The notes below the pieces were generated by a model. The model saw only the letters and a program-made list of their open reading frames with translations. It was not told the origin of the DNA and ran no database searches. A program made the position numbers and the translations under genes. Below, in pieces: positions 4,306 through 61,442 of a stretch of 64,000 nt of DNA (position 1 is the first letter of the stretch; every line of letters begins with the position of its first letter). Source of the stretch: Desulfurivibrio alkaliphilus AHT 2 (lineage in GTDB: Bacteria > Desulfobacterota > Desulfobulbia > Desulfobulbales > Desulfurivibrionaceae); contig NC_014216.1 of the NCBI RefSeq assembly GCF_000092205.1, positions 1,369,742 to 1,433,741 on the forward strand, written 5' to 3'.

Positions 4306-4362
4306 AACCTGGCTCCTTAAAAAACATTAAAATCAGTTAAAATAATTGCTGGTGGGTAACGC

Positions 4363-4471
4363 GTAAGCGGTCACGGGGTGCCCCAGATTGCGGCAAGCAG
4401 ACCGGCGCCGCGTACCTCAGTACGTAAGCCGGGCTGATCGCCGCAAGATGGGGTGCCCCGTGGCCGCTTAC
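4363..4471 (+). repeat. GTAA-hairpin element, type A, between rng and the radical-SAM gene
   Basis: A 109-bp imperfect palindrome from GTAAGCGGTCACGG to its complement. The arms contain the type-A blocks cacggggtgcccc, ttgcgg and accggc, with the conserved internal loop caag opposite atcg. The lead module is reduced to GTAACGC just before it (4356-4362). No convincing 8-bp duplication is seen. The right end supplies the TAA stop codon (4468-4470) of the radical-SAM gene on the minus strand. Confidence 0.85.
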
Positions 4472-7014
4472 GGCCGGGACCATAATTTCATCACCCGGGC
4501 TGCGGCCAACTGTTCCGGTTCCGGGGCGCAGGCGGCGGCTACCACTTCCAGGGGTTTTACCGTCGGCCGGCCGGCTTCCTGGACCATCACCAGCTCAAGT
4601 TCGCCGGGCGCCCGCAGGGCAAACTCCTTTACCACCGGACGAATATCCAGGGTGCGCGCCGCCCCTTTGCGGCGTACCGTCATAACAAATTCTTTAGCAG
4701 CCAGCAAGGCCGACGGCGCCCCGGGGTCGATTTTCCCAGGCAAGCTGATCCGGTAGGAGCTGAGCAGGCTTGGCGGTTGTTGCCGCCCTCCCGGCTCCAG
4801 CAAGAGCACCCGCAGGCCGGCAGGCAACTGCCGGTTCAACTCCTCTTTGGCCGCCGGCAAGTCGGTAAGCGGCGCCGTCAGCTCCAGCCAGAGAAACTCA
4901 TCCTGGCTTTCGGTGCCCAGCGGCAGTGCCGGGCCGAAGGATACCTTGGGCGAGGGGTTGAAGCCCTGACTGAAGGCCAGCGGCCAGCCGGCCCGGCGCA
5001 GGGCCCGGAAAAAGACCTGCAGCACCTCCAAGTGCCCCAGGAAACGGGCCTCCCCCAGCCGGGAATAACGCAGGCGATAACCAATCCCCACCTCCGGCCG
5101 CGCCATCTGATGCGCCCCCTCCTGTTCCGCGGCCTCCCGCCGCCCCCCGGAGTCGCCGGCATCCTGGCCAGTGGTGGCCTCCGGCCGGCGAAAAACCACC
5201 GGCTTAACGGTTTTGAAATCGCACAACCCGCATTTACTGCAACCGTGCAACCGGCAGTCGGGGGTATACTCTTCAGCCAGGGCCCGCTGATATTCCGCCG
5301 CCAGAAATTTCCGGCTCACCCCGGCATCCAGGTGGTCCCAGGGCAAAGGCTCCTCCGGCTCCCGGCGCCTGAGATAGCTATCGAGATCAAGACCCAAAGC
5401 GGCGGCGGCGGCCTGCCAACGCTCCAGGTTGAAATGGTCGGACCAGGCGTCCAGCCGGGCGCCATCCCGCCAGGCCCGCTCCACCAGCGCGGCAAGGCGC
5501 CGATCTCCCCGGCAGAAAACCCCCTCCAGGTAACTTTGGCGCGGATCATGCCATTTGAGTTTGAATTTTTTGTGCCGCAGCTGCTGCTTTAAAAAGTCAA
5601 TGCGGGCAAAGCCCTGCTCTATCGACAGTTGGGGCTCCCGCTCGAAGGGGGTGTGGGGCTTGGGGACAAAGACGGCGCTGCTCACCGTTACCTGGCAGCG
5701 GCCGGCCGGCCCGGTTTTTAATACCTTATGGGCCAACTCGACGATGGCCGCCAGGTCTTCTTCGGTTTCGGTGGGCAGCCCGAACATGAAGTAAAGCTTG
5801 ATCAACTTCCAGCCCAGCCCAAAGGCGCTGCGGCTAGCGGCCAGCAGATCTTCCTCGCTGATTCCCTTGTTGATCACCCGGCGCAACCGATCGCTGCCCG
5901 CCTCCGGGGCCAGGGTGAAGCCGGTCTTGCGCACCCGCTTGATCTGCTCCATCATCTCCGGGGTCAGGGACCCCACCCGCATGGAGGGGAGAGAGACGGA
6001 AACCCGGCGGCGTTCCAGGGCATCCATCAGTTGCCCCAGCAGTTCGTTGATACAGGCATAATCACCGCTGCTCAAGGAGAGCAGGGCCACCTCTTCAAAA
6101 CCGGTCTGTTCAATTTTACCCAGAATTTCCTGCAAAACCCGGGATGGCTCTCGCTCCCGCACCGGCCGGTAGATAACCCCGGCCTGGCAGAAGCGGCAGC
6201 CCCGGGTACAGCCCCGGGCGATCTCCACCCCCAAGCGGTCATGCACCACCCGGGTGGCCGGCACCAGCGGGGCAACGGCATGATCCACCTGTTCCAGGTC
6301 GGCCAGCACCCGGCGGCGAACCGGCGGCAAATCGGGCCGCCGGGCTTCGGTGCCGAGAAAACGGCCCGCCTGGTCATAACGGGGGGCAAAAAAGGAAGGT
6401 ACATAAACCCCCGGCACCGCTGCCAGAGCCGCCAGGATCTGCCCCCGGGCCAGCTTTTGCTCCCTGCCCCGCTGCACCACCGCCAGCATTGCCGGCAGGG
6501 CCTCCTCGCCGTCGCCCAATAAAACGGCATCAAAAAAATCGGCCACCGGCTCGGGGTGGAAGGCACAAGGACCACCTCCGAACACCAGGGGCTGATCTTC
6601 AGTGCGCTCTTCAGCGCGCAAAGGCAGCCCGGCCAGATCGAGGATGGTCAGGATATTGGTATAGCAGAGCTCATAGGGCAGGCTGATCCCCAGCACGTCA
6701 AATTCGCCCAGGGGACGGCGGGATTCCAGGGAAAACAGGGGCAGCCCGGCCTCGCGCAGGGCCTGTTCCAGATCAAGATCCGGGGCATAGACCCGTTCTG
6801 CCAGCCATTCCGGCCGGGCGTTGACCAGGTGGTAGAGAATCTGCAGACCCTGATGGGACATGCCGATTTCGTAAAGATCGGGAAAGGCCAGGGCCAGGCG
6901 CAGGCGGGCCTGCTGCCAGTCTTTCCTGACCACATTGAATTCGTTGGCGCAATAACGCCCGGGTCGGTTGACCCGGGACAACAGGGCATCGATATCCATA
7001 AAAATATTTACCAT
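4468..7014 (-). CDS. B12-binding radical SAM protein fused to a DUF2344-type domain
   Basis: The 848 residues combine a cobalamin-binding-like N-terminal domain, a radical SAM core with the CxxxCxxC cluster (RGCTRGCRFC, C269/C273/C276), a Cys-rich segment around residue 590 (CRLHGCSKCGLC), and a C-terminal domain of about 220 residues (RYSRLGEARFLGHLE...) of the TIGR03936/DUF2344 type. Such fusions (TIGR03960 plus TIGR03936) are commonly next to rng and are thought to modify RNA or ribosomal components; the reaction is not known to me. An alternative ATG at 6999 (MDIDALLSRV) matches the usual family start; neither start has a strong Shine-Dalgarno. The stop codon lies inside the adjacent repeat element. 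Confidence 0.87.
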   Translation of the reverse strand: MVNIFMDIDALLSRVNRPGRYCANEFNVVRKDWQQARLRLALAFPDLYEIGMSHQGLQILYHLVNARPEWLAERVYAPDLDLEQALREAGLPLFSLESRRPLGEFDVLGISLPYELCYTNILTILDLAGLPLRAEERTEDQPLVFGGGPCAFHPEPVADFFDAVLLGDGEEALPAMLAVVQRGREQKLARGQILAALAAVPGVYVPSFFAPRYDQAGRFLGTEARRPDLPPVRRRVLADLEQVDHAVAPLVPATRVVHDRLGVEIARGCTRGCRFCQAGVIYRPVREREPSRVLQEILGKIEQTGFEEVALLSLSSGDYACINELLGQLMDALERRRVSVSLPSMRVGSLTPEMMEQIKRVRKTGFTLAPEAGSDRLRRVINKGISEEDLLAASRSAFGLGWKLIKLYFMFGLPTETEEDLAAIVELAHKVLKTGPAGRCQVTVSSAVFVPKPHTPFEREPQLSIEQGFARIDFLKQQLRHKKFKLKWHDPRQSYLEGVFCRGDRRLAALVERAWRDGARLDAWSDHFNLERWQAAAAALGLDLDSYLRRREPEEPLPWDHLDAGVSRKFLAAEYQRALAEEYTPDCRLHGCSKCGLCDFKTVKPVVFRRPEATTGQDAGDSGGRREAAEQEGAHQMARPEVGIGYRLRYSRLGEARFLGHLEVLQVFFRALRRAGWPLAFSQGFNPSPKVSFGPALPLGTESQDEFLWLELTAPLTDLPAAKEELNRQLPAGLRVLLLEPGGRQQPPSLLSSYRISLPGKIDPGAPSALLAAKEFVMTVRRKGAARTLDIRPVVKEFALRAPGELELVMVQEAGRPTVKPLEVVAAACAPEPEQLAAARVMKLWSRP

Positions 7015-7034
7015 GCTATTAAGGGGGGGTACCC

Positions 7035-7964
7035 TTAGTCAACCGTTTCCAGGGTGTAACCGGCGGGGATGGGAAGCTGAAAATCCTCGGGCCGCAACGC
7101 GCAGTCGGCCAGCAAGTCGGACAGCAGCAGGCTCAGGCTCAATCCTTGATGACGGCGGGAATCCAACTCAATCCGATGGGGCAGCAGCCAGCCGGGCTCA
7201 TCGCCGACTTGCGGCACCGGGCGGTAATCATCGTAAATTATCTCCGCCGGCTGCCGCTGGTCCGGTTCAAAAAGCTGAATCCGCCGCACCAGGCCGGTGC
7301 CCGGGCGGAACGGCGGGTAGTGATCATCGTTGCCGACAACCTTCAGCGGCGGCTCAAGATCGAAAAGCGGCTCAAAAAGCAGCCGGGCCCGGGGGGGCTC
7401 GGCCACCTCCAGCCAGTAACCCCGCCCATCCGGCGCCCGGTAGACCGCCACGATCTCGGGCTCAAGCGGCATGCCGCCAAACAGCCAGGCAAACAGGCTC
7501 TCCGGCAGCCTTTCCGCCGGCAACCCCTGGGGCAGGTGTTGCCGGAATGCCTCGGCGGTGGTCGGACCCTGGTAAACCAGGGCCTGGTTAACCAGCAGCA
7601 GGCGAAAGGTTTCACCGTTGGTGGTCAGCGCCAGCGCCGGGCGCCCCAAGGGGTCCAGGCCGACAAACTTTAACCGGTTGGGCGCCATGGCCTGGAGATA
7701 ACCGGGCAGCACACCGGAGCGCAACCAACTGCGCCACTGGATTTCAGCTTCGGCATCCAGGCATTGCATCTGCCGGTGACGCTGCTCCATGGTCGCCAAA
7801 AACAGTTCTTCCACCCCCTGCCGTTCCCGGCCGGTTAGCTCTTCCCCCACCGGCGGCAGGCGGGTGGCGCATCCCGCCGGCAACAGCAAAAGCAAACACC
7901 ACAGCGGCAAGAGGAGCCGGAAGCAATCGCTTACCGGTGCCGTTTTTCTTCCGGCGGCCATCAT
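7035..7964 (-). CDS. Putative outer-membrane lipoprotein (LolB/DUF4292-like)
   Basis: A 309-residue product from the ATG at 7962-7964. A short basic N-terminus, a leucine-rich membrane segment and the lipobox LPAGC show it is a secreted lipoprotein. The body resembles the LolB/DUF4292 type of lipid-binding beta fold; this is a weak resemblance from residue pattern only. The frame runs further upstream through the neighbouring repeat element, which is not plausible coding sequence. A GTG at 7976 inside the element is another possible start. It originally overlapped the upstream TPR gene by an ATGA junction, now split by the element at 7965-8118. It probably works with that TPR lipoprotein in the envelope. 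Confidence 0.72.
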   Translation of the reverse strand: MMAAGRKTAPVSDCFRLLLPLWCLLLLLPAGCATRLPPVGEELTGRERQGVEELFLATMEQRHRQMQCLDAEAEIQWRSWLRSGVLPGYLQAMAPNRLKFVGLDPLGRPALALTTNGETFRLLLVNQALVYQGPTTAEAFRQHLPQGLPAERLPESLFAWLFGGMPLEPEIVAVYRAPDGRGYWLEVAEPPRARLLFEPLFDLEPPLKVVGNDDHYPPFRPGTGLVRRIQLFEPDQRQPAEIIYDDYRPVPQVGDEPGWLLPHRIELDSRRHQGLSLSLLLSDLLADCALRPEDFQLPIPAGYTLETVD

Positions 7965-8118
7965 GTAACTGTTCACGGGATACCCCCTGCGTGACGATCT
8001 TCCAAGGAGTAAGCGGTCACGGGGCACCCCAGATTGCGGCAAGCAGACCGGCGCAGCGTACACCGGGTACTCAAGCCGGGCTGATCGCCGCAAGGTGGGG
8101 TGCCCCGTGATCGCTTAC
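7965..8118 (+). mobile_element. GTAA-hairpin MITE, type A, with exact 8-bp target duplication
   Basis: Full copy of 154 bp: lead module starting GTAACTGTTCACGGG (7965) and hairpin 8009-8118 (GTAAGCGG...CGCTTAC). It is flanked by the exact 8-bp direct repeat GCCATCAT at 7957-7964 and 8119-8126. The repeat holds the lipoprotein start codon on one side and the TPR-gene stop codon on the other. Removing the element and one repeat restores an ATGA overlap between the two genes. The lead module is shared with the copy at 47833-48002 (ataccccctgcg, gacgatcttccaa). Confidence 0.9.
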
Positions 8119-8122
8119 GCCA

Positions 8123-9901
8123 TCATCCGTTGCGCTCTGCCGTCAGTTCTTTGATCTTTAATTCAATTTGTTCACGCAGTTCCGGATCACCATTGGGAGG
8201 CAGCAGCGCCAGGGCCCGCCGGTAAGCGGCCAAAGCCTCGGCAACGTAGCCCAGCCGGCGGTAGGCGTCCCCCAGGTGATCGTGGATCACCGGGTCGTCT
8301 TCCAGCAGTTGCACCGCCAGCTCAAGCTCCTCCATGGCGCGCTGGTATTTGCCCAACCGGTAATAAACCCAGCCCAGGCTGTCCCGGATGGCGCCGTCAT
8401 CGGGCTTCAGCCGCACCGCCTCCTCGATGTACTCCCGGGCCAGCTCCAGGTTCTCGCCCCGGTCGGCCCAGGTATAGCCCACATAATTCAAGGCATAGGG
8501 ATCGTGGGGATCCAGGGCGATAACCTCCTGCATTTTGGCCAGCGCCCCCTCACTGTCCCCGACCCGGTCAAGATAGACGGCATATTCAAAATATACTTCC
8601 GGTTCCGGTCCCAGGTCCTGCAGGGCGCGTTGAAATATCGCCAGCCCCTGGCCGGCGTCATGCCACTCGATATGCAGCAGCGCCAGGGTGACATAAAAAC
8701 TCAGGTAACGGTGCTGGGAATCGGCCAGGGCCCGCTCCAGTACCGCCTCGGCCGCCACCGGTTGGCCGCTGCCGTGGTATATCCGGGCCAGCATCAGTAC
8801 CGCCTCCTCATAACCGTAATCGCCGGGGCGGATCTCCTCCAGCAGGTTGCGGGCCAAATCGATTTTTCCCAGCCGATAATAGGCCAGCACCAGCAGTGAA
8901 CGAACCGCATCCAGCCGTGGTTCATCGGCAAGCAGCCCCTGCAACAAAACCACCGCTTCCTCGTAGCGCTGTTCATCCAGCAAAATCCTGGCCATGGTCA
9001 GATCGACCCGGTCCACATCCCGGCTGTATGGCCGTAAGGCGGTCAGTTCAGCCAGGGCCTCTTCCACCCGTTCCAACCGCAGATAAAGGTCGGCCAGCAG
9101 TGAGCGGGCCCGCTCATCGGCGGGATTTTTGGCCACCATCCGGCGAAGAAGCGCCAAACTATCTTCGTAAAGACCGGCCGCTTCGTAAATCGCCGCCAGC
9201 TCCTGGGCCAGAGGAGCGGACCAGTTCAGTTCCAGGGCCCGCTCATAAGCCCCCAGCGCCTGTTCAATCAGCCCCAAATCATGGTACAGTCGCGCCAGAT
9301 AATAATGTCCCAGGAAATAGGCCGGCTGGTCGGCCACCAGTTGCTCCAATATTTCACGGGCTTCCTGGCGGCGGTCACTGCTGCCGTAAATCACCGCCAG
9401 CATCAGCATGGCGTTGGCGTTGCCCGGATCAAGCGTGAGAATCTCCTGATAAACGGCAGCGGCCCGATCGGGATCATCAAGAGCGGTATAAAGCTTGGCC
9501 AATAGGGAACGGGCGGCAAGATCGGTCGGATCGATGGCGATGATCCGGCGCACCCAGTAAATGGCCTGCTCCCGCTCCTGTTGCTGAAGCAGCAGCATGG
9601 CCAGTCGGCGCATGACATGAACCGCCTTGCGGTCGCAAAGCAACGCCTGCTGGTAGGCATAGCGGGCCTCATCGTAGCGCCCGCCCAGCTCGGCACTTTT
9701 GCCCCAGGCAAACTGAAAATAAGCGCAAGCCAGGTCCACCGCTTCTTCGTAGGGCTCCAACTCCGCCGCGTAACGTGGCCCGGCAGGGGCAGCCTTAACC
9801 GGTTCCTCGGGAGGCACCGCCGGCCGCGACGCACAACCCCCGGTCAGCAGTAAAACCGCCGCCAATACGGTAGCCAGCGATAACAACCTAGTTGTGCCCA
9901 T
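8123..9901 (-). CDS. TPR-repeat lipoprotein
   Basis: A 592-residue protein from the ATG at 9899-9901 (an in-frame ATG at 9907 and GTG at 9913 are alternatives). The N-terminus has a hydrophobic stretch ending in the lipobox LTGGC, so it is exported and lipidated. The rest is a regular array of about 34-residue helix pairs with TPR signatures such as LDPGNANAMLMLAVIYG, DPHDPYALNYVGYTWADRG and PVIHDHLGDAYRRLGY; roughly 12-14 repeats can be counted. TPR arrays scaffold protein complexes; the partner is unknown. It was originally translationally coupled to the downstream lipoprotein gene, which suggests they act together. Confidence 0.83.
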   Translation of the reverse strand: MGTTRLLSLATVLAAVLLLTGGCASRPAVPPEEPVKAAPAGPRYAAELEPYEEAVDLACAYFQFAWGKSAELGGRYDEARYAYQQALLCDRKAVHVMRRLAMLLLQQQEREQAIYWVRRIIAIDPTDLAARSLLAKLYTALDDPDRAAAVYQEILTLDPGNANAMLMLAVIYGSSDRRQEAREILEQLVADQPAYFLGHYYLARLYHDLGLIEQALGAYERALELNWSAPLAQELAAIYEAAGLYEDSLALLRRMVAKNPADERARSLLADLYLRLERVEEALAELTALRPYSRDVDRVDLTMARILLDEQRYEEAVVLLQGLLADEPRLDAVRSLLVLAYYRLGKIDLARNLLEEIRPGDYGYEEAVLMLARIYHGSGQPVAAEAVLERALADSQHRYLSFYVTLALLHIEWHDAGQGLAIFQRALQDLGPEPEVYFEYAVYLDRVGDSEGALAKMQEVIALDPHDPYALNYVGYTWADRGENLELAREYIEEAVRLKPDDGAIRDSLGWVYYRLGKYQRAMEELELAVQLLEDDPVIHDHLGDAYRRLGYVAEALAAYRRALALLPPNGDPELREQIELKIKELTAERNG

Positions 9902-9925
9902 GACCATCCCCACTGATCATCGTTG

Positions 9926-10097
9926 GTAATCGTTCAGCCGCACCGCATCTTCGGGCGATCAGCCAGGCTTACGGAGGGGACAGTTTTAAAAACTGTCCCC
10001 GATTACGCTGCACCTGGCTGCTTGCCCGAACCTGCGGCACTGCTGAACGATTACAGCCCGTTATACCTGCAGGTTAGTACCCCCGGTAAACGGTTAC
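9926..10097 (-). mobile_element. GTAA-hairpin MITE, type B, with nested palindrome and 7/8-bp target duplication
   Basis: Inverted orientation relative to the copy at 17593. Hairpin 9926-10054 with type-B arms (cgttcag, ttcggg, gccagg blocks), followed by the lead module to GGTTAC at 10097. Flanking direct repeats are CATCGTTG (9918-9925) and CATTGTTG (10098-10105). The tip is replaced by a palindrome with GGGGACAGTTTT arms (9976-10000). Its end supplies the tmk stop codon; without the element tmk would stop one codon earlier. Confidence 0.88.
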
Positions 10098-10762: not shown

Positions 10763-10779
10763 TGCCGCCCCTCTCAACG

Positions 10780-11850: not shown

Positions 11851-11882
11851 GGCAGGTTTCTCGTCGCTCACCGGGATGTTAT

Positions 11883-12894: not shown

Positions 12895-12996
12895 GGGCAC
12901 CCCCGGGCACCACGATATCCCCAACCGCCGGCCCCGACGGGGCAACGTGGGTAGCGGTAGCCATGGAACAAGTGGTGCTGACAGACAAAGGTTAAA

Positions 12997-13344: not shown

Positions 13345-13481
13345 TGTACTTTTCCTTTAGCTACGGTTGCGGCCATGCCAGCAAGATCAGCTGCTGAAGT
13401 GGCCGGTTATTTCTAACAGTTATTAACCAACTAATCAAACTCTCAAAGCATCCGGCTGGTTTGCCCGACATGTTTGCCGGC

Positions 13482-14800: not shown

Positions 14801-14845
14801 AGTCTAACCAACCGTTCGCCCCGTTTACCCCACCAGCCATGTTCC

Positions 14846-14880
14846 ATGTTGCCCGAACCCGCGGTACTGCTAACCACTTA
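14846..14880 (-). repeat. One-arm remnant of the GTAA-hairpin element
   Basis: The stretch gttgcccgaacccgcggtac followed by tgctaaccacttac matches the right arm of the inverted type-B hairpins (compare 10020-10054). No partner arm is found. It supplies the TAA stop codon of rimM at 14878-14880. The loss of one arm implies an old, decayed insertion. Confidence 0.6.
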
Positions 14881-15435
14881 CCCCTCACCGAGCAAGCCGG
14901 GCGGGGGGGTCAGCAGCAGCCAGGCCGATTCACCCTCATGGTCGTGACGCAGGGCCATAAACTCCGGATGGACCGGGACCAGATATTCCCTATGTTGTTC
15001 GTCGACAATGACCAGCAACGGATGGGCAGCGGTCAACATAAAATCTGTCACCAGCCCGACTTTACGGCCCTCGGCGGTGTACGCCGCCAGGCCGGCCAAC
15101 TGGTGCCAGTAAATATCATCCGGTGCCAGGGGCGGCAATTCTCCCGCCGCCAACGCCACCACCCTATCCCGCAGGGCTTCCGCCTGATTCCGGTCGTCAA
15201 CCCCGGCCAGCCGAATTACCAGTGCCCCACCCTGCGAACGCACCGCCAACAGGGGGTACGCCAGGGGCGGACCGCCGCTTGCGGGCAACAGGAACAGCTC
15301 TTCCAGGCCGGAAAAATCCAGCGGCGCACCGGCCAGGGGCAGCACTTTCAGCTCCCCTTTTACCCCCTGGGGCTTGACAATCCGACCGATTTCCACCAGT
15401 TCGCCCCGGCGGGCGCCGGTAAAAATGATCCGCAA
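14878..15435 (-). CDS. rimM: 16S rRNA processing protein RimM
   Basis: Assists maturation of the 30S head with ribosomal protein S19. The 185 residues contain the N-terminal barrel EIGRIVKPQGVKGELKVLPL and the PRC-type barrel KVGLVTDFMLTAAHPLLVI with the EYLVPVHPEF segment. A TTG at 15433-15435 sits after GGAG from the KH gene end; a GTG at 15396 is an alternative. Its stop codon is inside a remnant of the repeat element. Operon with KH, rpsP and trmD. Confidence 0.94.
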   Translation of the reverse strand: MRIIFTGARRGELVEIGRIVKPQGVKGELKVLPLAGAPLDFSGLEELFLLPASGGPPLAYPLLAVRSQGGALVIRLAGVDDRNQAEALRDRVVALAAGELPPLAPDDIYWHQLAGLAAYTAEGRKVGLVTDFMLTAAHPLLVIVDEQHREYLVPVHPEFMALRHDHEGESAWLLLTPPPGLLGEG

Positions 15436-15438
15436 GGT

Positions 15439-17543: not shown

Positions 17544-17582
17544 GTAAATGTTCTGCAGTTATTGGCCCTGGTGAACGCTTAC
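17544..17582 (-). repeat. Internally deleted 39-bp derivative of the GTAA element
   Basis: Starts GTAAATGTTCTGCA and ends TGGTGAACGCTTAC, so both ends match the termini of the full element (GTAA-GTTCA type) while the hairpin is missing. It lies 10 bp left of the full copy at 17593-17743, in opposite orientation. No 8-bp duplication was found around it. Confidence 0.55.
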
Positions 17583-17592
17583 TGTTATCAAG

Positions 17593-17743
17593 GTAACCGT
17601 TCACCAAGGGTATTAACTTACCGGTCTAACGGGCCGTAATCGTTCAGCAGTGCCGCAGATTCGGGTAAGCAGCCAGGCGCCGCGTACACCGGGTACTCAA
17701 GCCTGGCTGATCGCCCGAAGGTGCGGTGCTGCTGAACGATTAC
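17593..17743 (+). mobile_element. GTAA-hairpin MITE, type B, with exact 8-bp target duplication
   Basis: Best reference copy, 151 bp. Lead module GTAACCGTTCACCAAGGG... (17593-17635) and hairpin 17636-17743 (GTAATCGTTCAGCAG...CTGCTGAACGATTAC). It is flanked by exact TTATCAAG at 17585-17592 and 17744-17751. The hairpin arms pair over about 45 bp, with a conserved internal loop (taag opposite atcg). It sits in the divergent region between ffh and the secreted protein gene. Confidence 0.92.
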
Positions 17744-17767
17744 TTATCAAGCAAGCGAGGTAAAGCC

Positions 17768-29966: not shown

Positions 29967-30075
29967 GGAAAACGTTCAGCAGTGCCGCAGCTTGCGGCAA
30001 GCGGACCGGCGCCGCGTACATCAGTACGCAAGCCGGGCCGATCGCCGCAAGATGCGGTGCTGCTGAACGTTTTCC
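29967..30075 (+). repeat. GTAA-hairpin element, hybrid arms, hairpin only
   Basis: Imperfect palindrome from GGAAAACGTTCAGCAG to its complement CTGCTGAACGTTTTCC. Outer stem is type B (gttcagcag) and inner stem is type A (ttgcgg, accggc). The usual GTAA/TTAC ends have changed to GAAA/TTTC on both sides, keeping the pairing. No lead module or target duplication is visible. The last base overlaps the TAG stop of the MotE-like gene. Confidence 0.82.
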
Positions 30076-44935: not shown

Positions 44936-46210
44936 ATGCCGGCAAGCAAGCACAGGATCGGCCTGAGCAACGATTGCGGGATGGTTGCAGCACTGCGCCG
45001 CTTCCCCCTGCGCACCCTGCTGCCCCTTTGTTTGCTGCTGCTTTTAAGCTGCCCGCTGAACGGCTTTGCCGCGGCCGATGAAACGGCCGATGAAGAGCAG
45101 CAAAAACTCGAGTCGTTGCGCCGCAACCTGGCAGAGCAGGAAGATCGTCTGGCCGCCGCCCGGGCCAGAGCCGAGGAGCTGCTGGCGGAACTGGCCGACT
45201 TGGACCGGCAGGTGGAACAGCAACAGACGGAACTGGCCACCCTCAGCCGGCACCTTGAAGAACACCAACAGACCAGAGCGCAGAAACAGGATCAACTGGC
45301 CCAGCTTAAAGCTGCCCACGAGCGAGCCGGGAAAAAAGTACAGCGTCGCCTCACGGCCGCCTACCAGACCGGGGAAGTGGCCATTCTCAACATCCTTTTC
45401 AGTGCCGAAAGCCTGCCTGACCTGCTGGAACTGCAGGATTATTTCCACTTTCTCCGGGAGCACGACCAGACTCTGATCAACGGCTATCGCGACCAGATCG
45501 CCACCCTGCAAGAGGCCCGGCAACACCTGGCCCAACTGGAAGAGGCGCTGCTGGCCGACAAGGCCATGGTCAAGAACCGGGAAGAGCAGCTCCAAGCTAC
45601 CCGCCGGGAACAGGCCGAGGTGCTGCGCCGGGTGCAAAACCAGCAACGGTTGCACCAGCAAGCCCAGCAGGAAATCAGCAAAGCCGTGGATCTGCTGGCC
45701 ATTGCCCTCACCGCTACCCTGACCGACCAGTCCAAACGGGTACCGGGAAGCGAGGGGGCCACGGCCCCTTCCCCGACCCCAACACCAGGCACCGGGGAGG
45801 ATGATTTTGCCAACCTGCGAGGCCTCGTCCGCTGGCCGGTTGAGGGCAAGGTGATCACCGGATTCGGGCAGACCATCCGGGGTCCGCTTGGGGAGGTTGG
45901 CGAAAGCCGCGGCATTATCATTAAAACCGACATCGGCGCGCCCGTAAGAGCCCTGGCCGCCGGCACCGTGGCCCATGTGGGGGAAATGCCCGGTTACGGC
46001 AAAATGATCATCGTTAATCATGGGCAGCGCTATTTCAGCCTGCTGGCCGGGCTGGCCGAAATCAACTCCCGGGAGGGCGCCCCGGCACGGCCGGGGCAGA
46101 TCATGGGCACCACCGCCGCAGCCGGTGGCGCTGAAGGCCGGCTTTACCTGGAGATCCGTCAGGGGGTCCAGACCCTGGATCCCATGGAATGGCTGCAAGA
46201 CAACCGGTAA
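44936..46210 (+). CDS. envC: EnvC-like murein hydrolase activator
   Basis: The 424 residues have a signal peptide (LRTLLPLCLLLLLSCPLNGFA), a long coiled coil (about 50-260) that binds FtsX, and a LytM/M23 domain at about 300-420. The M23 zinc ligands are missing: the HxxxD region reads SRGIIIKTD and the HxH region reads GRLYLEI, so it is a non-catalytic activator like E. coli EnvC, not a peptidase. The stop TAA is inside a decayed repeat element (46207 on). Coupled to ftsEX. Confidence 0.9.
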   Translation: MPASKHRIGLSNDCGMVAALRRFPLRTLLPLCLLLLLSCPLNGFAAADETADEEQQKLESLRRNLAEQEDRLAAARARAEELLAELADLDRQVEQQQTELATLSRHLEEHQQTRAQKQDQLAQLKAAHERAGKKVQRRLTAAYQTGEVAILNILFSAESLPDLLELQDYFHFLREHDQTLINGYRDQIATLQEARQHLAQLEEALLADKAMVKNREEQLQATRREQAEVLRRVQNQQRLHQQAQQEISKAVDLLAIALTATLTDQSKRVPGSEGATAPSPTPTPGTGEDDFANLRGLVRWPVEGKVITGFGQTIRGPLGEVGESRGIIIKTDIGAPVRALAAGTVAHVGEMPGYGKMIIVNHGQRYFSLLAGLAEINSREGAPARPGQIMGTTAAAGGAEGRLYLEIRQGVQTLDPMEWLQDNR

Positions 46211-46300
46211 GCGGTCACGGGGTGCGCATCTTGTGGCGATCAAACCCGGCTTGTGTACTGATGTACGCGGCACCGAGCCGGTACCACCCATGACCGGGCC
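46207..46300 (+). repeat. Decayed GTAA-hairpin element after envC
   Basis: Begins GTAAGCGGTCACGGGGTG, the start of the type-A hairpin, and later shows diverged inner parts (gtggcgatcaaacccgg, gtactgatgtacgcggcaccgagccgg). The right arm is eroded and no TTAC end is found. It supplies the envC stop codon. Confidence 0.6.
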
Positions 46301-46319
46301 GGCAGGGGAGGCAAAAATG

Positions 46320-47832: not shown

Positions 47833-48002
47833 GTAACTGAGAATACCCCCTGCGAGACGATCTTCCAAAGAGTAAGCGGCCACGGGGCACCCCAGATTGC
47901 GGCAAGCAGACCGGCGCAGCGTAATCGGGGACAGTTTTCAAAACTGTCCCCTCCTCAAGCCGGGCTGATCGCCGCAAGGTGGGGTGCCCCGTGATCGCTT
48001 AC
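47833..48002 (+). mobile_element. GTAA-hairpin MITE, type A, with nested palindrome, cutting the end of the fumarase gene
   Basis: Lead module from GTAACTGAGAATACC (47833) and hairpin 47872-48002. Direct repeats GCGACGGT (47825-47832) and GCGGCGGT (48003-48010) flank it. The tip carries a 24-bp GGGGACAGTTTT-type palindrome at 47927-47950. It lies inside the 3' end of the fumarase beta gene and replaces its original last codons. Confidence 0.88.
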
Positions 48003-48566
48003 GCGGCGGTAGAAATCGTTGCCGGCCAGGTCGTTGATCACCACCGCCGGAAAGTTTTCCACCTCGAAACGGAACATGGCTTCGGCTCCGGCATCGGCAA
48101 AAGCCACCAGTTCGCTTTTGCGGATGCAGCGGGAGAGCAGGGCACCGGCCCCGCCGATGGTGGCCAGATAAATGGCCCCATGGGCCAGCATGGCTTGGCG
48201 CACCTCCTCCGAGCGAGGGCCTTTCCCCATGGTGGCCGTCAGCCCCAACTCCAGTAACCGGGGAGTATAGGCGTCCATCCGATAACTGGTGGTGGGGCCG
48301 GCGGCTCCGATTACCCGGCCCGGCAGAGCCGGCGTCGGGCCCACGTAGTACAGCAGTTGCCCCCGCAGGTCCACCGGCAAAGGGCGCCCTTCATCAAGCA
48401 GCGCGCAGAGGCGCCGGTGGGTTTGATCCCGCCCGGTGTAGAGCACACCACTCAAACTTACCAGTTCCCCGGCCTTAAGTTCGGCCACCACGGCAGGATT
48501 AAACGGCACCTCCACCCGGCGCAACTGTTGCAAAAACTGGGAAACAGGGGATATCTTCGGCATCAT
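47955..48566 (-). CDS. Fumarate hydratase class I, beta (C-terminal) subunit
   Basis: Second subunit of the oxygen-sensitive iron-sulfur fumarase (interconverts fumarate and malate). The 203 residues include GELVSLSGVLYTGRDQTHRRL, GPTPALPGRVIGAAGPTTSYRMD and KGPRSEEV, the catalytic swivel-domain pattern. ATG 48566 follows GAGG. The last 15 residues (VSDHGAPHLAAISPA) come from an inserted repeat element; without it the protein would end ...FYRRN. Partner alpha gene is directly upstream, separated by another copy of the element. Confidence 0.9.
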   Translation of the reverse strand: MMPKISPVSQFLQQLRRVEVPFNPAVVAELKAGELVSLSGVLYTGRDQTHRRLCALLDEGRPLPVDLRGQLLYYVGPTPALPGRVIGAAGPTTSYRMDAYTPRLLELGLTATMGKGPRSEEVRQAMLAHGAIYLATIGGAGALLSRCIRKSELVAFADAGAEAMFRFEVENFPAVVINDLAGNDFYRRVSDHGAPHLAAISPA

Positions 48567-48592: not shown

Positions 48593-48743
48593 GTAAGCGT
48601 TCACCAAGGGCACTAACCTACCGGTTTAACGGGCTGTAACCGAACAGCCGTGCCGCAGGTTCGGGTAAGCAACCAGGCGCGGCGTACCCCCTGTACGTAA
48701 GCCTGGCTGATCGCCCGAAAATGCGGTGCGGCTGTTCGATTAC
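48593..48743 (+). mobile_element. GTAA-hairpin MITE, type B, with exact 8-bp target duplication
   Basis: Lead module GTAAGCGTTCACCAAGGG (48593) and hairpin 48636-48743. Flanked by exact AATTACAG at 48585-48592 and 48744-48751. The repeat on the right contains the stop codon of the fumarase alpha gene. It separates the two fumarase genes, originally about 20 bp apart. Confidence 0.92.
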
Positions 48744-50977: not shown

Positions 50978-50983
50978 TGCTGC

Positions 50984-51748: not shown

Positions 51749-51813
51749 AGATTAGACCTTTTTCACCTCTTTCTTAAGCGCCTCCGGCCAAGGCGGTGCA
51801 TGCGATCTTACGA

Positions 51814-52656: not shown

Positions 52657-52664
52657 GCTGCCAC

Positions 52665-53756: not shown

Positions 53757-53757
53757 A

Positions 53758-53909
53758 TTAACCGCTCACCAAGAGCAAATGACTTAACCAGACAACGGGC
53801 TGTAAACGTTCAGCGGTGCCGCAGGTTGCGGCAAGCGAACCGGCGCCGCGTACCTCAGGTACGCAAGCCGGGTCGATCGCCGCAAGATGCGGTGCTGCTG
53901 GACGTTTAC
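53758..53909 (+). mobile_element. GTAA-hairpin MITE at the ruvA/ruvB junction with 7/8-bp target duplication
   Basis: Starts TTAACCGCTCACCAAG (53758, first base changed from G) and has a hybrid hairpin 53802-53909: outer type B (cgttcagcgg) and inner type A (ttgcgg, accggc). Flanked by GATTCATA (53750-53757) and GATTCATG (53910-53917). On the minus strand both copies read ATGAATC: one is the ruvA stop (TGA), the other the ruvB start (ATG). The element therefore cut an ATGA overlap without damaging either gene. Confidence 0.9.
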
Positions 53910-53912
53910 GAT

Positions 53913-54560: not shown

Positions 54561-54602
54561 TTATTCATCTCGCTTAAATTAACCCCATTTACCACTTGCA
54601 GC

Positions 54603-55088: not shown

Positions 55089-55102
55089 TCGTTCGCCTCC
55101 GC

Positions 55103-55852: not shown

Positions 55853-55904
55853 ATGCTCCTCTTAGCTCATGTTATTTTGTATATATGTATAGTGAGACCT
55901 GGTT

Positions 55905-56504: not shown

Positions 56505-56601
56505 AAATGCCCTGCCCCGACGACCGTTACCTGTTATAAAAAGGCTTTAATTTAGTCGGAAAACCGCTGCTTGACAAGCATAAAGCCCAAGCCGAACAAT
56601 G

Positions 56602-56752
56602 GTAAGCGAACAGCCGCACCGCATCTTCGGGCGATCAGCCAGGCTTACGTACAGAGGGTACGCTGCGCCTGGCTGCTTGCCCGAACCTGCGGCACGGCTG
56701 TTCGCTTACGGCCCGTGAGACCGGCAGCTTAGGACCCCTGGTGAACGGTTGT
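56602..56752 (-). mobile_element. GTAA-hairpin MITE, type B, overlapping the end of rsmI
   Basis: Hairpin 56602-56709 (GTAAGCGAACAGCCG...CGGCTGTTCGCTTAC) followed by the lead module to about 56752 (GGTGAACGGTTGT). No duplication remains, so it is probably an older insertion. Outer stem sequence differs from other type-B copies on both arms in matching ways. The lead module is read as the last seven codons and stop of rsmI. Confidence 0.85.
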
Positions 56753-57604: not shown

Positions 57605-58466
57605 CTCTACCGCCGTCACCAGCGGCCGTTAAACGACCGGCATCCGTTGCGGCAAAGGGCAGGCGAAGCTTGAAAGCGCCGCCGGGGCCGTCCAGGCAAA
57701 GCAACTCACCGCCACAGCCCCGCACCAACTTGCGCGCCAGGTACAAGCCAAGCCCCTGGTGATTGCTGCGGGTGGTAAAGAAAGGGGCAAAAATTTGGTC
57801 GCGCTGCTCCCCAGGGACTCCCGGGCCGCTGTCCCGAACCACCAGCTCCACCATTTCTCCATCAGTCAAGGTAAGGATCACCAGCGATGCCCGCTCACCC
57901 TCACGCACCGCCTCCAGGGCATTTTTCAGCAGGATATGCACCACTTCATGCACCACCACCAGGTCACCGACCAGGGCGGGCAGCTCGGGGGCCAGTTCAA
58001 GCTTGCGCTCCAGCTTGTGCTTATAAAAAGTGTCGGCGCAAAGAAATTCGTCTTCGCAGCGCACCACGTCATTGAGATTCCAGCCTCGAGGCTGCGGCCC
58101 TTCGGCGGGCAAAGCGGGCATGGTCAAGGCCCGGCGCAAAATCTCCGCTCCCTGCCCGATCCTCTCTTTGAACTGGGTCAGGCCCTTTTGCTGTTCCTCC
58201 AGCACCACCGCCAACTCACCCAGGGGTCCGGCCGCCTGAGCCGGGGTTTCGGCTGCTTTTACCTGGGCCAGTAAGTCGGCCGCCCTTTCCAGGGCGAGAC
58301 GGGACACATCACCATAAAATGAGGCCACCTGCATCACCCCGTTAAGGTTGTGAGTAATCCCCCGGAACAAACGCCCCACGGCGGCATCATAAGACCTGGC
58401 CAGATAGGCCTTCTCCCAGCAACGAAGCAACTCGTCGGCGGTTGAATTCTCAACTTGCGCAACCAT
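57597..58466 (-). CDS. Soluble histidine kinase-like protein
   Basis: A 289-residue protein without membrane helices or an input domain. A possible phospho-acceptor region reads RGITHNLNGVMQVASF (His about residue 33), followed by a helical linker and an ATPase domain with N box (HILLKNALEAV), G1 (VVRDSGPGVPGEQ) and F/G2 (FAPFFTTRSNHQGLGLYLARKLV). ATG 58466 follows GGAGG. It overlaps rsmI by 8 bp. No cognate regulator is next to it; its signal and target are unknown. Confidence 0.78.
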   Translation of the reverse strand: MVAQVENSTADELLRCWEKAYLARSYDAAVGRLFRGITHNLNGVMQVASFYGDVSRLALERAADLLAQVKAAETPAQAAGPLGELAVVLEEQQKGLTQFKERIGQGAEILRRALTMPALPAEGPQPRGWNLNDVVRCEDEFLCADTFYKHKLERKLELAPELPALVGDLVVVHEVVHILLKNALEAVREGERASLVILTLTDGEMVELVVRDSGPGVPGEQRDQIFAPFFTTRSNHQGLGLYLARKLVRGCGGELLCLDGPGGAFKLRLPFAATDAGRLTAAGDGGRDA

Positions 58467-58675
58467 AAAAAGAGGACCTCCTTGCCAATGGTTTCGACGG
58501 CCCATCATTTTCCTCAATGGCCGCCCATGGGGGGTGTCAACGGGGATTGTCCAGGGGCCACCAGCCGTCCTTTTCAAAGGGCTGCCAGCGCGGGGCCCGG
58601 ACAAAGGGACAGGCCGCACCGGCAAACCGGCACGTCCGTACTGCCAGCATAGCGGGAAAGCGTAAACTTGACAAG

Positions 58676-58704
58676 GTAAGCTAATAACCCTGGTGAACGG
58701 TTAC
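58676..58704 (-). mobile_element. 29-bp micro-element with exact 8-bp target duplication
   Basis: Reads GTAAGC to GGTGAACGGTTAC: left and right ends of the GTAA element with the hairpin deleted. Flanked by exact TTGACAAG at 58668-58675 and 58705-58712. The duplication makes two TTGACA boxes upstream of the TraB-family gene. The rest of the 58467-58808 gap holds no recognisable gene. Confidence 0.7.
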
Positions 58705-58808
58705 TTGACAAGAAGCCGCAGTGATTGGCTGAAAATAGATTGCCCCCGGCAGCGATTTTCGGTAAAAGGGCATGGTCCTTAATCCATCCACCAAGGCAGG
58801 AAAAGCAC

Positions 58809-60008
58809 GTGTCGACCCCCCCGAACACCACCCCCGAGAGCCACCTGCACCAGGACGTGCACCTGGTCAGCCTGGCCGGCCGGCAGATTTTTCTGATCGG
58901 CACCGCCCATGTCTCTCAAGAATCCGCCGACCTGGTTCACCAGGTCATAGACGAGTTGCGCCCTGATGCGGTCTGCCTGGAACTGGACGAAAAGCGCTAT
59001 CAATCTTTGGCCCACCGCAAAAAATGGGAACTGCTGGACCTCAAGGAAATTATGCGGCGCCGCCAGTTGGCCACCCTGTTGATCAACCTGCTGCTGGCCT
59101 CTTACCAGAAGAAGCTGGGCGACAAGCTGGGGGTGCAGCCGGGCAGCGAGTTGCTAAACGCCGCCCGCCAGGCGGAAGAGCTTAATATCCCCGTAGCGCT
59201 TTGCGACCGGGACGTCCGGATCACCATGCGCCGGGCCTGGCGGGCCACTCCCTGGTATCGCAAGATGATGCTGCTGGCCACCCTGCTGGCCGGCATGTTC
59301 GACCGCAGCGAAATCAGCGAGGCCGATCTGCGGGAGTTGCGCAACACCGACCTGCTCTCCGAGCTGATGGCCCAGCTGGGCCGGGAGCTGCCGGAGCTCA
59401 AAGAGGTGCTCATCGACGAGCGCGACACCTATCTGGCGGAAAAAATCAAGGCCACCAGCGGAGACAAGCTGGTGGCGGTGGTCGGGGCCGGCCATGTGGC
59501 CGGCTTGAAAAAAGCCCTCGCCCAGGACCGGCAGGAGCAAATGGCGACCATCAGCCGGATTCCGCCGGCCGCCAAAACCTGGAAAGCCCTGGCCTGGGCG
59601 GTACCGGCAATAATCTTGAGTGCACTGGCCTATATTGCCATCAGCAAGGGTATGGCCGTGGCCGGCCAGAATCTGATTTACTGGATTTTAGCCAACGGCA
59701 TTCCCGCCGCCATCGGCGCGGCTTTGGCTCTGGCCCATCCCCTGACCATTGCCGGGGCCTTTGTCGCCGCGCCGGTAACCAGCCTGACCCCGGTGATCGG
59801 GGCCGGTTACGTCACCGCCTTTCTCCAGGCCAATTTTCGCCCCCCCCTGGTGGTGGAATTTGAGCGCGTCCTGGATGACATGAACAGCCTGGGGGGCTGG
59901 TGGCGCAATCGCCTGCTGCGTATTTTTCTGGCCTTCATCCTGCCGGCCATCGGCAGCATGATCGGCACATGGGTCGGCGGCTACGAGATCCTTTCCAACG
60001 TTTTTTAG
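58809..60008 (+). CDS. TraB/PrgY family membrane protein
   Basis: The 399 residues contain the TraB-family motifs LIGTAHVSQESADLV, AVCLELDEKRY and VVGAGHVAGLKKAL, which place it in the TraB/GumN (Tiki-like) fold, possibly a metallopeptidase. Several membrane helices follow (KALAWAVPAIILSALAYIAI, LIYWILANGIPAAIGAALALA, LTIAGAFVAAPVTSLTPVIGAGYVTAF, IFLAFILPAIGSMIGTWVGG). GTG 58809 follows AGGA. Substrate unknown; founding members turn down pheromone signals. The G of its TAG stop belongs to the inserted repeat. Confidence 0.85.
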   Translation: MSTPPNTTPESHLHQDVHLVSLAGRQIFLIGTAHVSQESADLVHQVIDELRPDAVCLELDEKRYQSLAHRKKWELLDLKEIMRRRQLATLLINLLLASYQKKLGDKLGVQPGSELLNAARQAEELNIPVALCDRDVRITMRRAWRATPWYRKMMLLATLLAGMFDRSEISEADLRELRNTDLLSELMAQLGRELPELKEVLIDERDTYLAEKIKATSGDKLVAVVGAGHVAGLKKALAQDRQEQMATISRIPPAAKTWKALAWAVPAIILSALAYIAISKGMAVAGQNLIYWILANGIPAAIGAALALAHPLTIAGAFVAAPVTSLTPVIGAGYVTAFLQANFRPPLVVEFERVLDDMNSLGGWWRNRLLRIFLAFILPAIGSMIGTWVGGYEILSNVF

Positions 60009-60157
60009 TAAACGTTCAGCCGCACCGCATCTTCGGGCGATCAGCCAGGCTTACGTACAGGGGTACGCGGCGCCTGGCTGCTTGCCCGAACCTGCGGCAC
60101 GGCTGAACGTTTACGGCTCGTTAAACCGCCAGGTTAGTACCCTTGGTGAAAGCTTAT
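60008..60157 (-). mobile_element. GTAA-hairpin MITE, type B, after the TraB-family gene
   Basis: Hairpin 60008-60114 (GTAAACGTTCAGCCG...) followed by the lead module to about 60157 (ctttcaccaaggg read on the minus strand). Flanking sequences GTTTTTTA (60000-60007) and TTTTTTTA (60157-60164) look like a duplicated T-rich target, but the T run makes the exact boundary uncertain by one base. Confidence 0.82.
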
Positions 60158-60189
60158 TTTTTTAACCAACGACTACGGGAACCAGTCAG

Positions 60190-60663
60190 ATGCCAGAACA
60201 TGAAAATCTTTACCTGCGCGGCTCCCTGGCCCGCGAACTGCGGGCCCAGGGCCATCACCTCAACCCCACGGTGATGGTTGGCCGGGAAGGTCTTACGGCG
60301 GCGGTGCTGGCCGCCCTGGAGGCGGTGTTGACCGCGCACGAACTGGTGAAAATCAAAATTCAGGAAGGCTGCCCGGAGGACAAAACCACCGTGGCCCAAC
60401 AGCTGGCCGCCGACAGCAACAGCCGGATCGTCCAGATTATCGGCGGCACCATTCTGCTTTACCGCCGGCTACCGCCGGCCAAGCGTCACTCGGACGGCCC
60501 CCGCTGCGACCCCGGCCAGGGCGAATGCCCCAAAGGCAGCCGCCGGGGCCACCGGCGCGGGGGCAAAACGGCTGGCCCCGCCGGCAGCGGCAGCCCCAAG
60601 AGCGGGACAATCCGCTCGCTGTCCCGGCGGCGCAAAGCTTCCGGGCGAGGTAAAACCCGCTGA
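60190..60663 (+). CDS. yhbY: YhbY/CRS1-domain RNA-binding protein with basic tail
   Basis: The first 95 residues form a YhbY domain: LYLRGSLARELRAQGHHLNPTVMVGREGLTAAVLAALEAVLTAHELVKIKI with GxxG-type IVQIIGGTILLYRR. YhbY associates with pre-50S ribosomes. The remaining 60 residues are Arg/Lys/Gly/Ser-rich (RRGHRRGGKTAG, SLSRRRKASGRGKTR), longer than usual. It stands between the TraB-family gene and cmoA. Confidence 0.88.
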   Translation: MPEHENLYLRGSLARELRAQGHHLNPTVMVGREGLTAAVLAALEAVLTAHELVKIKIQEGCPEDKTTVAQQLAADSNSRIVQIIGGTILLYRRLPPAKRHSDGPRCDPGQGECPKGSRRGHRRGGKTAGPAGSGSPKSGTIRSLSRRRKASGRGKTR

Positions 60664-60686
60664 ACCAACCGAGCTGAACAGGTCCC

Positions 60687-61409
60687 ATGCCTAAAGATCA
60701 ACTGTTCAACCACGGCAAGGTCGCCAGCGACTTCCGGTTCACCGCCGAGGTGGCCGAGGTCTTCGACGACATGCTGCGCCGTTCGATCCCCAATTACGAG
60801 CAGGTCATTGAAATGAACGCCCTGCTGCTGGAGTGTTTTTTGCGGCCCGGCGACCGGCTATACGACCTGGGCTGCTCCACCGGCAACACCTTGCTGCACC
60901 TGGCCCGGCGCCTGCAGATCCCGGAGCTGCGCCTGATCGGGGTGGACAACTCAGCGGCAATGCTGGACAAGGCCCGGCGCAAGGCGGCCGGTTACGCCCC
61001 CGGCGAGGCCATCGAGTTTGTCGAGGGCGACATCGGCGACTTTAACGGCCAAAACGCCGGGGCGATCATTCTCAACTACACCATGCAATTCATCCGCCCC
61101 TTGCAGCGGCCGGACTTTGCCGCCACCCTGTACCGGGCCCTGCGCCCGGGCGGCATCCTGATTATGAGTGAGAAGATCATCTCCCACGACCCGGAACTAA
61201 ACCGCCATTTCATCGATTTTTATTTCGACTTCAAGCGTTCCCGGGGCTACTCGGAAATCGAGATCAGCAAAAAAAGGGAGGCCCTGGAAAACGTGCTCAT
61301 TCCCTTCTCTCTGGCAGAAAACCGCCAGTTGCTGGAACAGGCCGGCTTTAAGCGGGTGGAGAGCGTTTTTCAATGGTTCAACTTCGCTTCCCTGGTGGCG
61401 GTTAAGTAG
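60687..61409 (+). CDS. cmoA: Carboxy-SAM synthase CmoA
   Basis: Makes carboxy-S-adenosylmethionine from SAM and prephenate for wobble-uridine modification (cmo5U34). The 240 residues contain LYDLGCSTGNTLLHLARRL (SAM motif I), LIGVDNSAAMLDKARRKA and IILNYTMQFIRPLQR, matching CmoA. The partner cmoB follows directly. Confidence 0.93.
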   Translation: MPKDQLFNHGKVASDFRFTAEVAEVFDDMLRRSIPNYEQVIEMNALLLECFLRPGDRLYDLGCSTGNTLLHLARRLQIPELRLIGVDNSAAMLDKARRKAAGYAPGEAIEFVEGDIGDFNGQNAGAIILNYTMQFIRPLQRPDFAATLYRALRPGGILIMSEKIISHDPELNRHFIDFYFDFKRSRGYSEIEISKKREALENVLIPFSLAENRQLLEQAGFKRVESVFQWFNFASLVAVK

Positions 61410-61421
61410 CAAGCGCTCGTA

Positions 61422-61442
61422 AGCGTTCAGCCACGCAGTATC
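61422..61442 (+). repeat. Short remnant of the GTAA-hairpin element
   Basis: The sequence gtaagcgttcagccacgcag matches the outer left end of type-B hairpins (compare 60008-60030). No right arm is present. Low information; recorded as a probable decayed copy. Confidence 0.4.

What the first reader, a model, noticed from the sequence alone, without database searches (positions are those of the whole stretch)
4356..61442. A GTAA-ended, 8-bp-duplicating hairpin element family fills gene junctions
At least twelve related copies or remnants occur (4363, 7965, 9926, 14846, 17544, 17593, 29967, 46207, 47833, 48593, 53758, 56602, 58676, 60008, 61422). The full unit is about 150 bp: lead module GTAAC-GTTCA... 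(43 bp) plus hairpin bounded by GTAA and TTAC (108 bp). Exact 8-bp flanking repeats are seen at 7965 (GCCATCAT), 17593 (TTATCAAG), 48593 (AATTACAG) and 58676 (TTGACAAG); 7 of 8 match at 9926, 47833 and 53758, and 60008 has a near match. From established knowledge, GTAA ends with 8-bp duplication are typical of IS66-family insertion sequences. I infer a non-autonomous IS66-type MITE; no transposase lies in the window.
Basis: partly seen in the sequence, partly recalled or inferred. Interest (0 to 1): 0.9.

Follow-up and report, generated by a model that had tools for sequence, protein, structure and literature searches.

The report
Mobile hairpins docked at stop codons
About 300 copies of a 150-base jumping DNA hairpin lie in this sulfur-cycling bacterium's genome, mostly glued in one orientation to gene ends (often supplying the stop codon), and older copies keep the hairpin by paired mutations, so a genomic parasite seems to have become a standard ending for messenger RNAs.

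Summary
The unit is a 43-bp lead plus a 108-bp hairpin. Unit density in a 28% sample of the 3.1-Mb genome suggests 300-340 copies. Full units carry 8-bp target duplications (50 found versus 3.5 expected in permutations, 133 units). Sister species show clean empty sites. It is therefore a MITE. GTAA tips and 8-bp duplications fit IS66. Tips of subfamilies A and C match single-ORF (ISBst12-like) or DruA-associated IS66 elements of the same order by 12-13 of 13 bases. The own genome holds only one deleted classic IS66 copy, so the mover is absent or lost.

(1) Two classes exist: full units with duplications, and older hairpin-only units almost always without. (2) In Desulfurivibrio the hairpin end abuts a stop codon in one orientation: 57 of 73 units within 16 bp (null 6%, P about 1e-54); 24 use the tip's own TAA as stop. 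(3) Hairpin-only stems show heavy compensatory change (95% of cells paired versus 73% shuffled), also at orthologous sites, while internal mismatches stay fixed.

Best reading: an IS66-type MITE whose hairpins are kept as 3'-UTR structures, like REP and YPAL. The RNA role is inferred, not shown.

The parts
4363..4471 (+). hairpin-only unit, subfamily B tips (GTAAGCGGTCACGG)
   Evidence: no 8-bp duplication; tip TAA is the stop codon of the minus-strand gene on its right (distance -4)
7957..7964 (.). left target duplication GCCATCAT
7965..8118 (+). full unit, subfamily B (lead 44 bp + hairpin 110 bp)
8119..8126 (.). right target duplication GCCATCAT
9926..10097 (-). full unit, subfamily A, hairpin enlarged to 129 bp by an insert; 7/8 duplication (CAACAATG/CAACGATG)
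14846..14886 (-). fragment (one hairpin arm)
17549..17583 (-). lead-module fragment next to the 17593 copy
17585..17592 (.). left target duplication TTATCAAG
17593..17743 (+). full unit, subfamily A: lead 17593-17635, hairpin 17636-17743
17744..17751 (.). right target duplication TTATCAAG
29968..30074 (+). hairpin-only unit with GAAA/TTTC tips, adjacent to a stop codon, no duplication
46207..46316 (-). decayed hairpin-only unit (right boundary approximate)
47833..48003 (+). full unit, subfamily B, with an internal GGGGACAGTTTTCAAAACTGTCCCC insert; 7/8 duplication (GCGACGGT/GCGGCGGT); absent from the orthologous junction of sister species G002
48593..48743 (+). full unit, subfamily A, exact duplication AATTACAG
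53758..53909 (+). full unit, duplication GATTCATA/GATTCATG; clean empty site in sister species G002
56602..56752 (-). full unit, subfamily A, no recognisable duplication; absent from the G002 junction
58676..58704 (.). 29-bp internal-deletion remnant GTAAGCTAATAACCCTGGTGAACGGTTAC with exact duplication TTGACAAG
60008..60157 (-). full unit, subfamily A, 6/8 duplication
61419..61436 (.). single-tip fragment (GTAAGCGTTCAGCCACG)

Best explanation
The units are a non-autonomous IS66-type transposable element (MITE) that has amplified to about 300 copies. Shown: an IS66-like tip (GTAANCGTTCA and variants) at both outer ends, 8-bp duplication of the target, empty sites, recent bursts. Inferred: mobilisation in trans by an ISBst12-like or DruA-associated IS66 transposase that is no longer present. 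The unit carries three tips: lead GTAA, internal GTAA and terminal TTAC. The internal tip can apparently also act as an end, so the 108-bp hairpin can move alone (few cases). Shown: in Desulfurivibrio, insertions are found mostly at gene ends, with the hairpin end facing the upstream gene; the 8-bp target overlaps the stop codon, or the tip supplies an in-frame TAA. Shown: old copies that lost lead and duplication keep the paired stem through compensatory change. Inferred: the hairpin, transcribed as the start of the 3' UTR in a fixed sense, is retained because it ends or protects the mRNA.
For: Duplications: 50 observed against 3.5 permuted; 30 best copies nearly all duplicated; same architecture and duplications in other genera, G013 and G029, at about 70-80% identity. 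Recent burst in G003: all five complete copies read with both flanks have exact duplications. Empty sites in G001/G002 for units at window 53758 and L086:735, 2194 and 5249. Tips: C 13/13 to a single-ORF IS66, A 12/13 to a DruA+IS66 element; the transposases are IS66 by NCBIfam and Pfam; ISDge4, an active ISBst12-group element, has tips GTAACTGCTCAGCA and an 8-bp repeat (PMC12898284). Docking: 57 of 73 right ends within 16 bp of a facing stop, null 6.1%, P 1.4e-54; tandem pairs R:L 41:4, P 9e-9. For 13 of 22 duplicated units examined the target 8-mer overlaps the stop codon; seven of 9 inserted upstream of it have the tip TAA in frame. Pairing: 94.6% versus 72.8% shuffled and 27-43% slid; 23 of 30 pairs with two-sided change. 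Compensation at orthologous sites L076:7529, L086:13882, L122:17400. C-A, A-C and U-C mismatches fixed in 50-52 of 54.
Against: No IS66 transposase was found in 24 of 27 family genomes, including G013 with about 197 candidates and G003 with a recent burst; some of these genomes are incomplete. The own genome's classic IS66 has tips that match subfamily A by 10-12/13, so the subgroup of the mover is not settled; subfamily B tips match less well. Docking and orientation bias are nearly absent in G013 (4 of 22; tandem R:L 6:9), so they are not a property of the element everywhere, and the few full units of G001-G003 show no orientation bias (2:4). No expression data: the RNA role is inference. 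Compensatory change could partly come from template switching between arms.
Confidence: 0.72

Rival explanations
1. Plain selfish MITE: docking at stop codons only reflects where insertions are harmless in a gene-dense genome, and the hairpin does nothing for the host.
For: Genome about 85% coding with a median gap of 56 bp. The tip TAA is in frame in 7 of 9 insertions upstream of the stop, as expected if others were purged. Hardly any docking in G013, where gaps are longer.
Against: Tolerance does not predict orientation: both outer tips read GTAA inward, yet 41 of 45 tandem units face the same way. Right ends cluster within 7 bp of the stop although the gaps are longer, and 20 of 20 convergent units have the right end within 16 bp of a stop. 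Compensatory change continues in old hairpin-only units.
Confidence: 0.3
2. Target-site choice by the transposition machinery: the transposase prefers 3' gene ends (for example transcription-termination zones) and fixes the orientation, so docking is mechanistic, not selected.
For: Duplication-bearing units already show the docking (22 of 28), and the target 8-mer overlaps the stop codon in 13 of 22. YPAL elements are reported to behave alike (review PMC2229807, for duplications and dyad targets; 3'-end preference from my own knowledge of De Gregorio 2006).
Against: No shared target motif beyond weak preferences for A at positions 2 and 5. The same kind of full unit in G013 and G029 does not clearly dock.
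Confidence: 0.3
3. The stem stays paired because of template switching between the arms (quasi-palindrome correction), not because of selection.
For: Paired change is visible also in full, mobile units, whose two arms covary.
Against: Such correction should erase mismatches, yet C-A, A-C and U-C mismatches are kept in 50-52 of 54 hairpin-only copies in the middle of covarying stems.
Confidence: 0.15
4. REP-like element moved by a RAYT (Y1 transposase) without target duplication.
For: GTAA-footed hairpins at 3' ends resemble GTAG REPs, whose ends also give stop codons (PMC3733652). Most hairpin-only units lack duplications.
Against: 8-bp duplications and empty sites of full units; a hairpin-only unit with an exact duplication (G002 L092:2439, 8/8); unit length 108-151 bp versus 20-40 bp for REPs.
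Confidence: 0.05

Closest known systems
IS66 family, ISBst12 group (e.g. ISDge4, PMC12898284)
   Same: Ends of GTAACTGCTCAGCA type; 8-bp direct repeats; single-ORF or DruA-associated members in the same order share tips 12-13 of 13 with subfamilies A and C.
   Different: No coding capacity; 151 bp; an extra internal tip and a conserved mismatched hairpin; no ISBst12-like transposase found in the own family.
YPAL / RU-2 of Yersinia
   Same: Palindromic miniature insertion with empty sites; reported close downstream of stop codons and co-transcribed (review PMC2229807; 3' preference from own knowledge).
   Different: YPAL duplications vary from 3 to 26 bp and inverted repeats are internal; here the duplication is 8 bp with IS66-type tips. 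No homology tested.
GTAG-tagged REP / BIME
   Same: Predominantly in tandem and convergent gaps, next to 3' ends, tips often supplying a stop codon (PMC3733652).
   Different: REPs are 20-40 bp, RAYT-linked (own knowledge), without target duplication, footed by GTAG (TAG) rather than GTAA (TAA).
ERIC / RUP / Correia (NEMIS) MITEs
   Same: 100-160-bp mobile palindromes that can alter mRNA; orientation matters for ERIC (PMC2229807).
   Different: TA at the termini and TA targets, not 8-bp duplications.

Membership tests
MITE (miniature inverted-repeat transposable element) | terminal inverted repeats | tested here: met
   GTAANCGTTCA at both outer ends
MITE (miniature inverted-repeat transposable element) | target-site duplication of fixed length | tested here: met
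   8 bp, 50 versus 3.5 permuted
MITE (miniature inverted-repeat transposable element) | absent (empty) orthologous sites | tested here: met
   window 53758, L086:735/2194/5249
MITE (miniature inverted-repeat transposable element) | many near-identical non-coding copies | tested here: met
   283 candidates, best pairs 97-99%; burst in G003
IS66 family, ISBst12-like branch (as parent) | ends starting GTAA, sharing the branch's tip sequence | tested here: met
   A 12/13 to L186; C 13/13 to L183; subfamily B weaker (10-11/13)
IS66 family, ISBst12-like branch (as parent) | 8-bp duplication | tested here: met
   both for the IS elements and for the MITE
IS66 family, ISBst12-like branch (as parent) | autonomous partner with the same ends in the same genome | tested here: not met
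   only one IS66 gene in the genome, of the classic kind and 5'-deleted; none in most family genomes
IS66 family, ISBst12-like branch (as parent) | transposase acts on the ends | not testable with these tools
   needs a transposition assay
REP/RAYT | no target duplication and a 20-40-bp unit | tested here: not met
   8-bp duplications, 108-151 bp
REP/RAYT | RAYT (Y1) transposase partner | not tested
   no search for PF01797 was made
Known RNA family (Rfam) | match above gathering score | tested here: not met
   no match in the window; only sub-threshold miRNA-precursor matches

The most novel reading that the evidence does not exclude
Hairpin-only units are a new, widespread class of structured mRNA 3'-end element in Desulfurivibrio: domesticated MITE hairpins fused to stop codons, with a conserved mismatch pattern read in one sense, that end or stabilise transcripts of on the order of a hundred genes.
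Probability: 0.4. Interest if true: 0.78.

Novelty: new variant of a known kind. Interest (0 to 1): 0.6.

Why it matters
If right, one genome holds every stage of a transposable hairpin becoming a gene-end part: fresh insertions with target duplications, copies that donate the stop codon, and old copies that have lost all signs of mobility but keep the stem by compensatory change. That makes a long-standing question about REP, ERIC and YPAL elements testable: are repeated palindromes at gene ends merely tolerated, or selected as RNA? It also gives IS66 elements, whose transposition is poorly characterised, a high-copy MITE with three apparent ends.

Tried and rejected
The own genome's single IS66 as obvious parent: it is a 1532-bp deletion derivative without matching flanks, of a branch whose typical tips (GTAAGCGC..AACCCC) fit worse; not excluded for subfamily A. 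DruA gene as marker of the mover in relatives: found in only 4 of 58 genomes, and the G004 copies have different ends (GTAAATATTCGGCC). Rfam: nothing. Hairpins as substitutes for intrinsic terminators: by a crude hairpin+T-run scan such terminators are rare here, 5 of 71 convergent gaps without units and 0 of 18 with, so no power. One of the 40 sampled 20-kb stretches (1340001-1360000) was picked knowing it was rich in copies, so the copy estimate is slightly high. Literature on repeats or MITEs in Desulfurivibrio or Desulfobulbaceae: none found; the library lacks most subscription papers.
Full report
What was looked at. The window is positions 1369742-1433741 of a single-contig genome of 3,097,763 bases. 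Its size equals what I remember for Desulfurivibrio alkaliphilus AHT2 (own knowledge); the genus assignment is not otherwise tested, and relatives below are named by handle. G001-G004 are of the same genus, G005-G026 of the same family, G027 and above of the same order.

The observation. A 151-base query finds 283 first-look candidates in the own genome; the 40 scored are 87-100% identical. Of the best 30 copies nearly all have exact or near-exact 8-bp flanking repeats. With HMM-defined ends in 464 kb, full units have 6 or more matching bases of 8 in 22 of 37 cases (several of the rest are fragments), against 0.8% for mismatched flanks. In 133 units from seven genomes, 50 duplications are seen against a permuted mean of 3.5 and maximum of 7. 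Unit density is 11 per 100 kb in 864 kb, so about 300-340 units per genome by extrapolation.

Anatomy. The full unit is a lead of 42-48 bp starting GTAA, then a hairpin of about 108 bp that itself starts GTAA and ends TTAC. Lead tip and hairpin tips belong together: subfamily A GTAACCGTTCACC + GTAANCGTTCAGC; B GTAACTGATCACGG + GTAAGCGGTCACGG; C (in G013) GTAACTATCCAGCTCA + GTAACTATCCAGCAG. Hairpin-only units lack the lead. They lack duplications in nearly all cases (0 of 25 with 6/8 or more). Four of the larger set reach 6/8 or more, against 0.4 expected, one of them 8/8 in G002, so the internal tip can apparently serve as an end. Hairpin-only units are more diverged (median nearest-neighbour identity 0.89 versus 0.97), that is, probably older. 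A 29-bp remnant with an exact duplication at 58676 shows internal deletion after insertion.

Mobility. Orthologous junctions in G001 and G002 show clean empty sites with a single target copy for the units at window 53758 and at L086:735, 2194 and 5249. In G003, contigs end in near-identical copies and all five complete copies read with both flanks have exact duplications, a recent burst. The same architecture with duplications occurs in G013, G029 and G054.

The mover. The own genome has one IS66 transposase gene: a classic tnpA/tnpC element reduced to 1532 bp, without matching flanks. Only 3 of 27 family genomes ring at all, one of them (G004) only as broken fragments. In the wider order, classic IS66 elements have ends GTAAGCGC..AACCCC. 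Single-ORF IS66 elements have GTAACTATCCAGC, GTAACTATTCAGC, GTAACTACTCAGC and similar, with exact 8-bp duplications. One element in G167 with a DruA gene and an IS66 transposase has GTAACCGTTCAGC and GTAATCGTTCACC, though its flanks show no duplication. Tip matches are 13/13 for C and 12/13 for A. Published ISDge4, ISBst12 group, has GTAACTGCTCAGCA and an 8-bp repeat (PMC12898284). IS66 parentage is well supported; the exact branch and the acting transposase are inferred.

Docking at stop codons. I called genes with a simple codon scorer (stop positions exact, starts rough). In the own genome 57 of 73 units in gaps have the right (TTAC, hairpin) end within 16 bp of a facing stop codon. Uniform insertion in the same gaps gives 6.1% (P 1.4e-54). 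In tandem pairs the right end faces the upstream gene 41:4 (full 21:4, hairpin-only 20:0). In convergent gaps 20 of 20 right ends lie within 16 bp of a stop while left ends lie 6-257 bp from theirs apart from one slight overlap. Of the 57, 24 use the TAA of the tip GTAA as stop codon. Rebuilding the empty genes of duplication-bearing units places the insertion 0-7 bases after the old stop in 13 of 22. Of nine inserted upstream of the old stop, seven have the tip TAA in frame. In G001-G003 the docking holds (20 of 31, P 8e-16), mainly for hairpin-only units (16 of 22), but their few full units show no orientation bias; in G013 there is hardly any docking (4 of 22) and no orientation bias. So it is a feature of this genus, not of the element everywhere.

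The hairpin is conserved as a structure. In 54 hairpin-only units of the own genome, G001 and G002, read in the gene sense, 30 consensus pairs are 94.6% paired (72.8% in shuffles, 27-43% when slid), 23 pairs have two-sided changes, and the covariation score is 0.52 against 0.14. Sequence relatedness inflates such counts, and the alignment mixes tip subfamilies. The stronger evidence is orthologous. At L076:7529 the own stem base CTAAAGTTACAGC/GCTGCAACTTTAG is TTAAACGGGCAGC/GCTGACCGTTTAA in G002; L086:13882 and L122:17400 also show two-sided changes. Mismatches C-A, A-C and U-C are kept in 50-52 of 54, which arm-to-arm copying alone would erase.

Reading. Shown: a MITE with IS66-like ends; docking and orientation; paired change in old copies. 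Inferred: the transposase; retention of the hairpin as a 3'-UTR structure, whether as terminator or as protection. Not separable here: targeted insertion versus selection after insertion. The lack of docking in G013 speaks for selection or for a different transposase.

Known relatives. GTAG REPs lie next to 3' ends and often give the stop codon (PMC3733652). YPAL elements are 168-bp palindromes with duplications of 3-26 bp and empty sites (PMC2229807). ERIC acts on mRNA in an orientation-dependent way (same review). The present family works like these but is no member: length and 8-bp duplication differ from REP, fixed duplication and IS66 ends from YPAL, and 8 bp instead of TA from ERIC. Hence a new variant of a known kind.

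Noticed in passing
window about 47923-47950 and inside 9926-10097; L077:17683-17812, L085:614-740: Hairpin loops of several copies carry a ~20-26-bp insert; at 47.9 kb it is the palindrome GGGGACAGTTTTCAAAACTGTCCCC, and the 9926 copy holds a GGGGAC-containing insert; this resembles a REP-type sequence nested in the MITE.
   Followed up: no
L032:3532-5063: The own genome's only IS66 is a 1532-bp deletion derivative (TnpA start joined to the 3' part of the transposase gene) inside or next to a glycosyltransferase gene; no 8-bp duplication.
   Followed up: partly
L062:20-2690 (G002): The intact IS66 of G002 is flanked by a direct repeat of about 117 bp instead of an 8-bp duplication.
   Followed up: no
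L186:136-2575; L184; L242/L246/L248 (G004): DruA (PF14236, known from Druantia anti-phage systems) sits beside an IS66 transposase inside IS66-ended elements in several Desulfobulbales; in G004 three 99.9% identical copies have a broken transposase frame.
   Followed up: partly
L081:1043 versus L273; L081:14598 versus L274/L272; window 48593 and 60008 versus L262/L257: The same gene junction, once apparently the same stop codon, is occupied by different units in sister species.
   Followed up: partly
L122:13621 versus L271: Where the own genome has a hairpin-only unit at a convergent junction, G002 has a canonical intrinsic terminator (AAAAAAAACGGGGGCAAAAGCCCCCGTTTTTT).
   Followed up: no
L096:8043, L097:9159 (G013), L103:6530 (G054): Another palindromic repeat, around GAGCAGCTTGTCTGCTC with AGCTGAGTTGAGCAGC, lies beside or within units in other genera.
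   Followed up: no
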